Shown: positions 3-21,495 of the stretch, piece after piece
Numbering within the stretch: the stretch's first letter is position 1
Layout: each line of letters opens with the position of its first letter
IMG/VR virus record: IMGVR_UViG_3300036766_000109
Location: 1-32,115 of that record
Strand: one strand, 5' to 3'
DNA: 32,115 nucleotides
Origin: a virus
Notes under the pieces: model-generated
What the model was told of the DNA's origin: nothing
Database searches by the model: none
The model's input: the letters and a program-made list of their open reading frames with translations, nothing else
Made by a program: the position numbers and the translations under genes

Positions 3-794
3 GAAATTCCATATGATGACTATGTATATAATCTAAGCGTTCAATACGATGAAAGTTATATTGCTGAAGGAAGAGCAGTTCATAACTGCTCGTTCGAACG
101 TGGTATATCGGGCTCATATTATGGATACTATCTGGATCAACTGAAGCTCAAAGGGCAAATATGTCCAGTTGCATGGGAACCTGGTTTGTTAACATATACC
201 GCTTGGGATATCGGAGTTAATGATGCTACAACAATTATCTGGTTTCAGGTTGTTGGTGAGGGTATTTCGATACGTATAATAGATTGCTATAGTAATAACA
301 ACTTAGGTCTGGATCATTACGCAAAAATCATACAAGAAAAACCTTACCGTTATGGAAAACACTTCGCTCCGGCGGACATCAAAGTACGTGAATGGGGTGG
401 AGGCGCAGTTACTCGGTTTGAGAAAGCTCGACAACTCGGGTTGGACTTCACACTTGTTGATCAGGTGAGTATTGTTGAAGGCATAGAGAATGTCTGGACT
501 CATTTCAATAAGTTCTGGATAGACCAAGACAAGTGTAGATCACTTATTAATGCGCTAGAGAACTACCGTAAAGAATGGAATCCAGAGCGTAATCAATATG
601 ATAATAAGCCGGTCAAATCATGGGCTAACCACTATAGCGATTGCCTTCGTTATCTATGTCTTGCTATACATAAGACTAAGCGAGGACTGACATCAGAAGA
701 GTTTGAGCGTAAGAAAGCAGAAGCTCTTTATGGAAATTCCCATAGCTTGCCTCGCTTTTTTAAGGATGATCCGAGGTATGATAGAACAAGGTAA
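3..794 (+). CDS. terL: Terminase large subunit, C-terminal part (cut by window edge)
   Basis: The reading frame is open from the first bases of the window, so the ATPase half lies upstream and this is the C-terminal part of the packaging motor, which cuts concatemeric DNA and pumps it into the prohead. The segment TAWDIGVNDATTI is the first acidic strand of the RNase H-like nuclease domain. The stretch around DKCRSLINALENYRKEWN, followed by KPVKSWANHYSDCLRYLCLAI with a second conserved Asp, is the usual end of that domain in podovirus-type terminases. An internal ATG-like start near 186 is not needed, because coding similarity continues upstream (SYYGYYLDQLKLKGQICPVAWEPG). The gene is followed after 9 bases by the next ORF. 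The family assignment comes from recognised motifs; the true start is outside the window. Confidence 0.9.
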   Translation, partial: EIPYDDYVYNLSVQYDESYIAEGRAVHNCSFERGISGSYYGYYLDQLKLKGQICPVAWEPGLLTYTAWDIGVNDATTIIWFQVVGEGISIRIIDCYSNNNLGLDHYAKIIQEKPYRYGKHFAPADIKVREWGGGAVTRFEKARQLGLDFTLVDQVSIVEGIENVWTHFNKFWIDQDKCRSLINALENYRKEWNPERNQYDNKPVKSWANHYSDCLRYLCLAIHKTKRGLTSEEFERKKAEALYGNSHSLPRFFKDDPRYDRTR

Positions 795-6283: not shown

Positions 6284-8208
6284 ATGATTACTAACCCGAC
6301 AACTCTACCCGCGCCTAAATGAATGGGCGCGTTAAATCTTCTCTGATGGACTTGAAACTCTTACCAGGTGATGCTGGAGACAACAAGGCGGAAGGCAATG
6401 AAGCCACCGTGAACGTAGCAAGCGAGAAGACGTCGAAAGACGATGCGGTGCTCTGAGCATTGCAGAAATGCAGTGAGGGATAAGTAGAGAAAGTCCCCGC
6501 CTAACAATAGGTCATAAAAGTAACAGAATGGTTCAGCAAACTTTTGATGATGTGCTACTTTCAGTCAGAACACCAAATCTGATTATGAAACTTGGCGCAT
6601 TATCTAAAAGATTGCCGGCAAAAGGTGGACGTACATTACGTATGGCGAGATACGACAGATTGCCAACGGCACCGGTTCCTCTTGGGCCCAGTGGCGCAAC
6701 GCCTCCTGCAACTCCGCTAAATCGTATAGACATCGACGCTACTATGAGTTTTTATGGCTTGTACGTAGCGATCAACCAGCAGGTTAAAAATGTAGCCTGC
6801 TTTAAATCAGCCCTAATTGAGGTGGAAGCCCTAGCGTGAAAACGTGGGTGACACTGCGCAAGATATTAATTTATAGGATTAGCGAATATGCAGAGCTTTG
6901 AGTTTATTAAAGAGTTCGTAACGAAGATCAAGAACTTCCTTTTCAATAGGTTGTGTTCCTTGATCGCCCTTACGCATTCTTGTTTTTTCAAAAGTATTTC
7001 GCATATCGATCATAATTTGGGCCTGTTCTTTCTTGATAATAAGATAGGGAAGAGTGCATTCGCACAAATGTTTAACGCGATCAGAATGGATAGTCCATCT
7101 AAATGGTCGGCGTTTACAGTTATTGGCCATTTGTTTGTCGGTATAAGTAGACTTTCCTCCACCAAAGTTATCAGCGAGCCAATCGATAAGAACTTTATCG
7201 GTACTCGTAACTTCAATCTTGGTATGGAAATGAGGAACACCAGTTTTTTTACTGAAGGCATAACAGCCAATAGTAATGGAACCTTCCCCGTCTATAATAC
7301 CCGCAAGATAAGCAAGTTGTGCGATAGTATATTCTTTTGGAATGTATTTGCTGATCATAGATTACCCCTTGCTATTAATAGTATAGGTATAGTTTATCGT
7401 AAATTAATATCGGCGTAAACGACTAAAGCGGGTAGACACTAGAAATAGTGAAGCGATAGTCTGAGCTCTATGGAAACATAGAGAGGGAGATCCGAAGAGG
7501 TTTCCCCGCCAAATAGAAAATATTTGGTCATAAAAGTAACAGAAATAATGCACATTGCAAAATCAAGACCCTGTCCTCAACGAAACCGCTGAGTTACTAG
7601 GTTTGAGTTTAAGAATGACCGAGGATCAATTAACGAGGGACATGTTAGCTGCAACTGCAACTATGTACAATTGTACAGGTGGTGGTAATGGCGACCTTCC
7701 TTCAAATTTATCTATCTCCGATATTGATGAAGTCACTGCATCGTTACTAACGAATGATGCCTGGATGATTTTGGATACGATTGGTGGCGAAGATAAATTC
7801 GGTACTGGTCCTGTAAGAGATGCATACCTTGCATTAGGTCATACTAATCTCTCCAAAGATCTTAATAATATCAATGGGTTCATTTCTAAATGGAACTACC
7901 CTAACGATAATAAGGTATTAAGATCTGAGTGGGGTTCAGTAAATAACGTAAGGTTTATGTTATCTTCTGTAGCATCTATATCTCCGAGCGCTTCTGCTCT
8001 TGGCAATGATGTGTATAACGTCTTCGTCCAGGGTATGGAAAGTATAGCCGTCGTGGAGCAAGATAACTTCTCTGCACGATTTTTATACAGACCGCCAGTG
8101 TTCTCTGATCCATTATTTCAGAATGTAACAATCGGGTATGTTTTCGCTGAAGTGCCTAGAATATTGAACGATTTATGGATCACTAACATGCGTTGTACGC
8201 TACTTTAA
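6284..8208 (+). CDS. Major capsid protein, N4-gp56 type, split by two group I introns
   Basis: Three exons, 6284-6316, 6531-6784 and 7551-8208, join into one 945-base frame (314 residues). Joined, the protein reads MITNPTTLPAP-VQQTFDDVLL... and ...FYGLYVAINQQV-TLQNQDPVLNETAELLG, both continuous with the pattern of the N4-gp56 capsid family (start near LPAPVQ, later YGxYVxxxxQV...QDPVLxExAELLG...DxLTRDML). The C-terminal third (FISKWN...SVNNVRFMLSS, later VVEQDNFSARFLYRPPVFSDPLFQNVTIGYVFAEVPRILND) also fits. The product forms the HK97-fold capsid shell. Without splicing, exon 1 meets a stop at 6320-6322. An AGGA ribosome site sets the start at 6284. Splice sites are deduced from base pairing and reading frame, not measured. 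Confidence 0.88.
6317..6530 (+). ncRNA. Group I intron 1 in capsid gene (no ORF)
   Basis: A 214-base self-splicing intron. P1: exon end GCGCCU (6311-6316) pairs with internal guide GGGCGC (6325-6330), ending in the required U-G pair. P10: UGAAU (6320-6324), directly before the guide, pairs with the first bases of exon 2, GUUCA (6531-6535). P7 may be formed by G6415 and AGCA 6417-6420 with UGCUC 6449-6453. P8 is CGUC/GACG (6431-6434, 6439-6442) with a GAAA loop, and P9 is a 7-bp stem 6458-6464/6469-6475 with a GAAA loop. The last base is G6530, as group I introns require. It shares a 19-base identical segment near the 3' end with intron 2. Confidence 0.85.
6531..6784 (+). CDS. Major capsid protein, exon 2
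   Basis: Encodes residues 12 to 95 and two bases of codon 96. An unspliced frame continues to 6839 but its last residues (KNVACFKSALIEVEALA) are translated intron and match nothing in the family. An ATG at 6528 would make this look like an independent gene; it belongs to the intron and has no ribosome site. Confidence 0.82.
6785..7550 (+). ncRNA. Group I intron 2 in capsid gene, carries antisense endonuclease gene
   Basis: A 766-base intron. P1: exon end GCAGGU (6779-6784) pairs with GCCUGC (6795-6800) including the terminal U-G pair. P10: AAUGU (6789-6793) pairs with ACAUU (7552-7556). The core is clear: R-like AACGACUAAAGCGGG with P7 GACUA (7421-7425) to UAGUC (7457-7461), P8 CACUA/UAGUG (7437-7441, 7446-7450) with GAAA loop, and P9 CUCUAUG/CAUAGAG with GAAA loop just after. 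A 12-bp stem (6862-6873 with 7400-7411) closes a loop that holds the whole endonuclease gene. The last base is G7550. Phase 2 junction restores codon GT|C (Val). Confidence 0.87.
6879..7358 (-). CDS. LAGLIDADG homing endonuclease, antisense inside intron 2
   Basis: The 159-residue product has one LAGLIDADG motif, YLAGIIDGEGS at residues 17-27 with the catalytic-type Asp23, followed by SITIGCY and a beta-rich half typical of single-motif enzymes, which act as homodimers. The C-terminal part (LPYLIIKKEQAQIMIDMRNTF and KEVLDLRYELFNKLKALH) is usual for the family. Such enzymes cut intronless alleles so that repair copies the intron in. The gene runs against the capsid gene, so capsid mRNA cannot express it; an AAGGGG ribosome site 7 bases before the ATG and an AT-rich stretch upstream suggest its own transcription. 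Predicted target is the joined exon2-exon3 sequence. No stop or frameshift is visible, so it may be active. Confidence 0.9.
   Translation of the reverse strand: MISKYIPKEYTIAQLAYLAGIIDGEGSITIGCYAFSKKTGVPHFHTKIEVTSTDKVLIDWLADNFGGGKSTYTDKQMANNCKRRPFRWTIHSDRVKHLCECTLPYLIIKKEQAQIMIDMRNTFEKTRMRKGDQGTQPIEKEVLDLRYELFNKLKALHIR
7551..8208 (+). CDS. Major capsid protein, exon 3
   Basis: Encodes the last base of codon 96 and the remaining 218 residues of the capsid protein. Taken alone it could be mistaken for a gene starting at TTG 7555; there is no ribosome site there and the sequence starts mid-domain (LQNQDPVLNETAELLG). Confidence 0.85.
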
Positions 8209-20845: not shown

Positions 20846-20888
20846 ATAGGTATCCTTATATTGAATCTATTATTATAAGGATACCTAT
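20846..20888 (+). promoter_or_regulatory. Hairpin hiding the ribosome site and start codon of the HNH gene
   Basis: ATAGGTATCCTTATA (20846-20860) pairs perfectly over 15 bp with TATAAGGATACCTAT (20874-20888) around a 13-base loop. The right arm contains the AAGGA ribosome site and the first two bases of the ATG. Read-through transcripts from the fibre gene would fold this way and block translation of the endonuclease. The stem may also act as a fibre-gene 3' end, though no T-run follows. Confidence 0.8.
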
Positions 20889-21495
20889 GTGTAAAGAGAT
20901 GAAATGCGAAGTATGTAAAGGTCCAATAAAGCCTATAAGAATTCCGAGGTTCTGTAGTCATAAATGTAAGGGACATGAATTAAAAACATCTTCATGGCTT
21001 AATAATCAATTCTCGTGGCAAAAAGCAACGGAAGAAGAAAGAATGAATCATATGAAAGAATACTATATGAATAATGTAATTAAACAGGATGGATGTTGGG
21101 ATTGGAAACATGGAAATCCTAGATATAGATATCCTAGAATGCATTTTTCTAAAAGTATTCCACGTATTGCTATTCATATTGCTTCATGGAGAATTCATAA
21201 AGGTGAAGTTCCAGATGGAATGTGGGTTCTTCATAAGTGTGATAATCCACGATGTTCTAATCCTGACCATTTATTCATAGGAACATCATTAGATAATATA
21301 AATGATATGCTAGCAAAGAATAGGAATGCTAAAGGTGAATCACATGGTTGTAGCAAATTAAAAAATGAACAAGTTGTTGAAATAAGAAGGCTATTAGAAT
21401 CTGGAATTAGTTTGAATAAAATTGCTAAAGAATTCGGCGTATCTAAAGCAACAATTTTAAAGATTAAAAAAAATAAAATATGGATACTTAACTAA
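20887..21495 (+). CDS. HNH homing-type endonuclease
   Basis: The 202-residue product has an N-terminal zinc-ribbon-like part (CEVC at 7-10, FCSHKC at 22-27). It also has an HNH_3-type core at about 95-147 (IHIASWRIHKGEVPDGMWVLHKCDNPRCSNPDHLFIGTSLDNINDM, with His116, Cys118, Cys123 and His128 as catalytic or metal residues). A C-terminal helix-turn-helix (residues 161-195, EVVEIRRLLESGISLNKIAKEFGVSKATILKIKK as a pattern) probably adds DNA specificity. Such enzymes nick or cut DNA and spread by gene conversion. It is free-standing between fibre genes, is AT-richer than its neighbours and is followed by hairpins. Its last codons copy the end of the upstream fibre gene. Confidence 0.9.
   Translation: MCKEMKCEVCKGPIKPIRIPRFCSHKCKGHELKTSSWLNNQFSWQKATEEERMNHMKEYYMNNVIKQDGCWDWKHGNPRYRYPRMHFSKSIPRIAIHIASWRIHKGEVPDGMWVLHKCDNPRCSNPDHLFIGTSLDNINDMLAKNRNAKGESHGCSKLKNEQVVEIRRLLESGISLNKIAKEFGVSKATILKIKKNKIWILN
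21481..21495 (+). repeat. 15-bp direct repeat, right copy (end of HNH gene)
   Basis: Exact copy of 20799-20813, supplying the last four codons and stop of the HNH gene. See the finding on how the insertion may have formed. Confidence 0.9.

What the first reader, a model, noticed from the sequence alone, without database searches (positions are those of the whole stretch)
6284..8208. Two group I introns split one major capsid gene, with matching P1 and P10 pairings
Seen: both junctions give perfect 6-bp P1 helices ending in U-G, 5-bp P10 pairings to the next exon, P7/P8/P9 elements with GAAA loops, and a restored continuous N4-gp56-type frame of 314 residues. The two introns share an identical 19-base segment near the 3' splice site (GGTCATAAAAGTAACAGAA), so they are probably siblings, one bare (214 bases), one carrying an endonuclease. 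Known: group I introns in phages favour conserved genes, usually polymerase, terminase, thymidylate synthase or ribonucleotide reductase. Two in a capsid gene of this family would be uncommon as far as I know.
Basis: partly seen in the sequence, partly recalled or inferred. Interest (0 to 1): 0.85.

Follow-up and report, generated by a model that had tools for sequence, protein, structure and literature searches.

The report
Two self-splicing introns in capsid gene
The gene for this uncultivated phage's main shell protein is cut into three pieces by two self-splicing (group I) introns; both are real, they belong to a widespread intron family that riddles this capsid gene in related phages, and some relatives also carry tiny core-less introns that may depend on a neighbouring intron to be removed.

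Summary
Confirmed. Intron 1 is 6317-6530 (214 nt) and intron 2 is 6785-7550 (766 nt). Removing both gives a continuous 314-aa N4-gp56 capsid protein (TIGR04387, 128 bits, cut-off 60), matched end to end by intron-less relatives up to 95% identical. Both have a 7-bp P1 with U.G at the splice site, a 5-bp P10, a terminal G, and P3-P9 with the P7 pseudoknot. A covariance model from 42 family introns shows 93% paired cells and 44 of 50 pairs with two-sided changes. Intron 2, not used in training, matches at E=1e-27 and 6e-11. Its LAGLIDADG ORF lies antisense in a P6 extension. Corrections: the shared 19-mer is a family-wide 3' tail (more than 119 viral stretches), not evidence that the two are siblings. 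Intron 1's closest relatives sit at other capsid sites; intron 2's sit at its own site. Capsid introns are common here: about 60 sites and 199 distinct introns among sampled relatives. Phage LittleE is an RT-PCR-proven precedent with the same antisense-endonuclease layout. Unexpected: 52 related contigs carry 32-62-nt frame-breaking insertions with covarying P1 and P10 but no core, each just upstream of a full intron: possible natural substrates for a neighbour's ribozyme. No RNA data exist.

The parts
6284..6316 (+). Capsid exon 1 (11 codons, MITNPTTLPAP)
   Evidence: spliced alignment; empty-site relatives
6317..6530 (+). Intron 1, ORF-less group I intron, 214 nt, phase 0 after residue 11
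   Evidence: CM R1 177 bits (it is one of the 42 training sequences)
6310..6316 (+). Intron 1 P1, exon side CGCGCCU, pairs with 6325-6331 GGGCGCG, U.G at the splice site
6320..6324 (+). Intron 1 P10 guide, pairs with exon 2 start 6531-6535
6337..6343 (+). Intron 1 P3 5' strand UCUUCUC, pairs with 6424-6430 GAGAAGA
6415..6420 (+). Intron 1 P7 5' strand G(U)AGCA, pairs with 6449-6453 UGCUC (variant P7, compensated)
6431..6442 (+). Intron 1 P8 hairpin with GAAA loop
6458..6475 (+). Intron 1 P9 hairpin
6510..6528 (+). Family-wide conserved 3' tail GGUCAUAAAAGUAACAGAA of intron 1
6531..6784 (+). Capsid exon 2 (last codon split GT|C)
6785..7550 (+). Intron 2, group I intron, 766 nt, phase 2 in codon 96
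   Evidence: 97.2 bits 3' half, 40.3 bits 5' half, not in training set; 47 relatives' ORFs need exactly this 766-nt gap
6778..6784 (+). Intron 2 P1, exon side AGCAGGU, pairs with 6795-6801 GCCUGCU, U.G at the splice site
6789..6793 (+). Intron 2 P10 guide, pairs with exon 3 7552-7556
6807..6813 (+). Intron 2 P3 5' strand, pairs with 7430-7436 (one mismatch)
   Evidence: sequence read by hand
6862..6873 (+). 5' arm of a perfect 12-bp helix (GAUAUUAAUUUA with 7400-7411 UAAAUUAAUAUC) that extends P6 and loops out the endonuclease ORF
   Evidence: direct sequence
6879..7358 (-). LAGLIDADG homing endonuclease ORF, 159 aa, antisense to the capsid gene
   Evidence: PF00961 E=1.8e-4, just under its cut-off; phrog_5046 E=5e-23
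7421..7425 (+). Intron 2 P7 5' strand GACUA, pairs with 7457-7461 UAGUC
7437..7450 (+). Intron 2 P8 hairpin with GAAA loop
7466..7483 (+). Intron 2 P9 hairpin
7526..7544 (+). Family-wide conserved 3' tail of intron 2
7551..8208 (+). Capsid exon 3 with stop codon

Best explanation
One N4-gp56-family major capsid gene is interrupted by two group I introns of a single widespread phage intron family. In the primary transcript each intron folds a P3-P9 core; its internal guide pairs with the end of the upstream exon (P1, 7 bp, U.G) and the start of the downstream exon (P10, 5 bp). A guanosine bound in P7 attacks after the U, the freed exon attacks after the intron's last G, and the joined message encodes the 314-aa capsid protein. 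Intron 2 carries an antisense LAGLIDADG endonuclease looped out of P6 that most likely spreads it by homing into intron-less capsid genes at residue 96. Intron 1 has no endonuclease; it probably arrived from another capsid site by retargeting of its guide or by recombination, and depends on co-conversion or inheritance. Shown here: precise exons and sites, P1/P10, covarying core, empty sites, endonuclease family. Inferred: self-splicing activity, homing, route of arrival.
For: Frame restored to 314 aa; TIGR04387 128 bits, cut-off 60. Relatives up to 95% identical have the gene uninterrupted, and 47 of their ORFs need exactly the 766-nt gap. Covariation on 42 introns: 93.3% of cells paired against 42-47% for slid controls, 44 of 50 pairs changed on both sides, P7 pseudoknot 99.5% paired. 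The family model finds intron 2, not in training, at E=1.3e-27 and 5.5e-11. The same model finds the LittleE capsid intron, shown by RT-PCR to be spliced (E=5.6e-6; PMC3706429), and its two best hits in 9.5 kb of T4 are the P7-P9 parts of the nrdB and td introns. P1/P10 for both introns. Intron 2's close relatives share its site and endonuclease.
Against: No RNA data; splicing is not shown for this phage. Rfam RF00028 scores stay below its gathering threshold, though T4's introns do too. The structure was partly read from the alignment, so 'cells paired' favours it; the two-sided changes do not. The 11-codon exon 1 is short and rests on relatives and P1/P10. Homing activity is not tested.
Confidence: 0.95

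Rival explanations
1. The two introns are recent siblings: one copied itself to the second site in this genome, and the shared 19-mer is the trace.
For: Identical 19-mer near both 3' ends; both clearly belong to one family.
Against: The 19-mer occurs exactly in more than 119 viral stretches. Intron 1's nearest relatives (about 80%) are at other sites (residues about 25 and 103) in other phages; intron 2's nearest are at 96.2 in other phages. Their P7 helices differ by compensated changes and P4 differs (CUUG/CAAG against GGUG/CACU).
Confidence: 0.04
2. The capsid gene is broken (decayed phage or assembly chimera) and the inserts are not removed.
For: No transcript data exist.
Against: Exons intact with no stops; the same sites are occupied in independent contigs (11.0 in 7 loci, 96.2 in 31); P1, P10 and core are maintained; the LittleE analogue is spliced (PMC3706429).
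Confidence: 0.02
3. The antisense ORF in intron 2 is not a working endonuclease but a relic; the intron persists by vertical inheritance.
For: Pfam score just under its cut-off (22.8 against 23.1); no promoter-like site found on the minus strand.
Against: The ORF is intact and 73-86% identical at protein level in same-site introns; homologous LAGLIDADG ORFs are found in 46 of the 91 distinct long insertions examined, 36 of them antisense.
Confidence: 0.2

Closest known systems
Mycobacteriophage LittleE capsid intron (Pope et al. 2013, PMC3706429; JF937101)
   Same: Group I intron in a major capsid gene, splicing shown by RT-PCR, with a LAGLIDADG ORF on the opposite strand; matches this family's covariance model (19.4 bits, E=5.6e-6).
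   Different: Different phage group and host; one intron in the gene; no match to the conserved GGUCAUAAAAGUAACAG tail in the model alignment; endonuclease ORF lies near the 3' part, not in P6.
T4 nrdB and td group I introns (annotated group 1A in NC_000866)
   Same: Share the P7 3' strand-P9 signature AUAGUCUG..; they are the model's two best hits in that stretch.
   Different: Only this segment matches; different genes, peripheral elements and endonucleases (annotated H-N-H and GIY-YIG).
Group I introns of Jug phages (PMC12363816)
   Same: Essential phage genes interrupted many times, with metatranscriptome support for part of them.
   Different: Huge gut phages; terL, nrdD and DNA polymerase are the genes named as split.
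Engineered group I spliceozymes and trans-excision ribozymes (PMC4094466)
   Same: A group I core removes a short intron recognised through P1 and P10, which is what the mini-introns of the window's relatives would need.
   Different: Engineered Tetrahymena ribozyme acting in trans; no natural example was found in the papers searched.

Membership tests
Group I introns | P1 with U.G at the 5' splice site, guide inside the intron | tested here: met
   7 bp in both introns; U-G in 39 of 42 family members
Group I introns | P3-P9 core with P7 pseudoknot and conserved G-C guanosine-binding pair | tested here: met
   P7 99.5% paired with compensatory changes; first G-C pair invariant in 42 of 42. Equivalence to Tetrahymena G264-C311 is from general knowledge
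Group I introns | Intron ends in G; P10 to the 3' exon | tested here: met
   G6530 and G7550; 5-bp P10 in both. The aligner required T..G ends for other loci
Group I introns | Rfam RF00028 at gathering score | tested here: not met
   also not met by T4 td, nrdB and LittleE, so this is a library threshold and not a usable criterion for such phage introns
Group I introns | GTP-dependent self-splicing | not testable with these tools
   needs an experiment
N4-gp56 major capsid proteins (TIGR04387) | Model score above curated cut-off for the spliced product | tested here: met
   128.2 bits against 60, residues 6-309; phrog_1357 major head protein E=1e-20
LAGLIDADG homing endonucleases | LAGLIDADG motif and family profile | tested here: inconclusive
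   Motif LAYLAGIIDGEGSI present; PF00961 22.8 bits against 23.1; phrog_5046 E=5e-23; homologous ORFs at the same site

The most novel reading that the evidence does not exclude
In the capsid genes of relatives, this intron family has core-less members: 41 distinct insertions of 32-62 nt (52 contigs) that carry only the guide (P1 of 6-8 bp with U.G, P10 of 4-8 bp abutting it) and end in G. They interrupt the reading frame (38 of 41 have an in-frame stop) and always sit just upstream of a full group I intron. The neighbouring intron's ribozyme would remove both itself and the mini-intron: a natural counterpart of engineered spliceozymes. The window has no mini-intron, but its intron 2 occupies the site used by about 18 of these partner introns and is a close relative of several.
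Probability: 0.6. Interest if true: 0.92.

Novelty: new member of a known kind. Interest (0 to 1): 0.62.

Why it matters
The gene for the most abundant virion protein of a large uncultivated phage group is a hot spot for one intron family with dozens of sites, which makes intron spread, guide retargeting and splicing efficiency testable by comparison of natural variants. Many annotated capsid genes in this group will be truncated unless introns are recognised, and Rfam misses them. The core-less mini-introns in relatives, if spliced by a neighbour, would be a natural case of one group I ribozyme serving several introns, a step towards a spliceosome-like division of labour that has been engineered; no natural report was found here.

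Tried and rejected
Rfam at gathering score on the window and 11 loci: no hits; on four other family loci at E<=0.05: none. Host assignment: no close cultivated phage (best capsid identity below 30%); one 3-kb contig in a Saccharibacteria bin is too weak to name a host. Sigma-70 scan for an endonuclease promoter: nothing above chance. Mini-introns as chance or assembly error: rejected, 41 distinct sequences with P1/P10 far above shuffles (on the first 14) and P10 complementary in five exon states. Mini-introns as translational bypass: disfavoured, because at two sites the insertion splits a codon (T|AC in L049, L054; AT|A in L048, L086) and both guide helices covary with the exons. Four mini-intron contigs first seemed to lack a nearby downstream intron; the covariance model found one in each. 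Literature searches for N4-gp56 plus intron, and for natural core-less group I introns, found nothing relevant. Some spliced models of distant or truncated loci (L030, L033, L070, L073, L097, L098) are unreliable and were not used for claims except where the covariance model confirmed the intron.

Full report
WHAT IS THERE. The window is an IMG/VR virus record of 32,115 bases. Joining 6284-6316, 6531-6784 and 7551-8208 gives a 945-nt frame of 314 aa without internal stops. The product matches the N4-gp56 major capsid model TIGR04387 at 128.2 bits, cut-off 60, and phrog_1357 major head protein. Many relatives, up to 95% identical, have the gene uninterrupted, and 47 of their ORFs match the window with a gap of exactly 766 nt at the second site. 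Junction DNA of intron-less relatives is shown.

ANATOMY. Intron 1 is 6317-6530 and intron 2 is 6785-7550. In both, the 5' exon ends in U and pairs through 7 bp with the intron (U.G at the splice site), the 3' exon pairs through 5 bp with the adjoining guide bases, and the intron ends in G. Forty-two short family introns, including intron 1, were aligned. A structure with P1, P3, P4, P6, P7, P8, P9, P9.1 and P9.2 gives 93.3% paired cells and 44 of 50 pairs with changes on both sides; slid controls give 42-47% paired and shuffles never reach the observed values. P7, the pseudoknot that defines the catalytic core, is 99.5% paired, with its first G-C pair invariant. Intron 1 belongs to a subgroup whose P7 has two compensated pair changes (AGCA/UGCU). 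A covariance model of this alignment finds intron 2, not in training, in two parts (E=1.3e-27 and 5.5e-11) separated by the endonuclease ORF, and nothing else convincing in the window. In intron 2 a perfect 12-bp helix (6862-6873 with 7400-7411) extends P6 and loops out the ORF.

ENDONUCLEASE. The ORF at 6879-7358 is a LAGLIDADG protein on the minus strand. This is the rule here: of 46 long insertions with a homologous ORF, 36 carry it antisense. The same arrangement was published for the capsid intron of mycobacteriophage LittleE (PMC3706429), whose splicing was shown by RT-PCR; that intron matches the family model (E=5.6e-6).

GROUP I MEMBERSHIP. Rfam RF00028 is not reached at its gathering score. 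The same is true of T4 td, T4 nrdB and LittleE, so the threshold is uninformative for such introns. In 9.5 kb of T4 the family model's two best hits are the P7-P9 segments of exactly the nrdB and td introns. Subgroup (IA2 or other) was not determined.

NOT SIBLINGS, NOT RARE. The shared 19-mer is a conserved 3' tail present exactly in more than 119 viral stretches; 101 of 131 occurrences of its first 17 bases lie in capsid genes of this kind, and several of the others are in portal, tape-measure, other head and ribonucleotide reductase genes. Intron 1's best matches are introns at other capsid sites (about 80% identity), intron 2's are introns at its own site with the same endonuclease. A spliced aligner applied to 370 sampled capsid genes found 199 distinct introns of this family at about 60 site labels, up to four per gene; sites 96 phase 2 (31 loci, including intron 2) and 103 phase 0 (48 loci) are hot spots. 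Some labels may be one site split by alignment noise. The sample is enriched for introns because part of it was fetched by the tail motif; in the 80 loci fetched by the window's own capsid sequence, 30 have at least one full-length intron.

CORE-LESS MINI-INTRONS IN RELATIVES. In 52 contigs (41 distinct sequences) a 32-62-nt insertion breaks the capsid gene at residues 84-91. In the first 14 found, P1 averaged 7.1 bp (shuffle mean 3.4, maximum 4.8) and P10 4.7 bp (mean 1.7, maximum 3.0). Part of the rest was fetched with a pattern that requires P1 at one site, so P1 there is not independent, but most of P10 is: over 41 sequences the first three bases of the downstream exon are complementary to the guide in five states (ACC/GGU 27, ACG/CGU 6, ACU/AGU 4, ACA/UGU 2, AAU/AUU 2). 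The counted set was filtered for P1 of at least 6 and P10 of at least 3 bp. Thirty-two of 41 are not multiples of three and 38 contain an in-frame stop. There is no room for a core. Forty-eight contigs have a full intron at residues 90-125, against 62 of 315 other capsid loci (Fisher p=1e-24; the groups were collected differently), and in the other four the covariance model finds one just downstream. The simplest reading is that the neighbouring ribozyme also removes the mini-intron, as engineered spliceozymes do (PMC4094466). This is inference; translational bypass is disfavoured because codons are split at two of the sites. Intron 2 occupies the site of many of these partner introns and its 5' part is 78-87% identical to several of them, but the window itself has no mini-intron.

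VERDICT. The introns themselves are new members of a known kind. The density of introns in this capsid gene and the core-less relatives are what a specialist would find surprising.

Noticed in passing
L080 10423-10460, L089 1682-1719 (-), L072 7637-7674, L049 8077-8112, L086 2068-2103 and 47 further contigs: Core-less 32-62-nt mini-introns in the capsid gene with covarying P1 and P10 and a full group I intron just downstream.
   Followed up: yes
window 3-794 (+): Start of the window is the C-terminal end of an intein (TIGR01443) followed by the rest of a large terminase; so a third self-splicing element interrupts this phage's packaging and head genes.
   Followed up: partly
window 20887-21495 (+): Free-standing HNH endonuclease with a resolvase-type helix-turn-helix (PF13392, PF02796) between structural genes.
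   Followed up: no
Introns of many relatives, e.g. L115 site 179, L024 site 213, L107 site 102: Small diverse sense-strand ORFs (50-100 aa) sit inside many introns and run into the core, often ending in ..QPERSKRED or ..QPERLSEKT (the core read as protein). Four tested had no Pfam match.
   Followed up: partly
window 6888-7418 (+): A 176-aa open frame runs on the sense strand opposite the antisense endonuclease gene, and similar long mirror frames occur in related introns; probably a by-product of the antisense coding.
   Followed up: no
L012, L078, L080 (first copy): The same intron family also interrupts the portal gene of related phages.
   Followed up: partly
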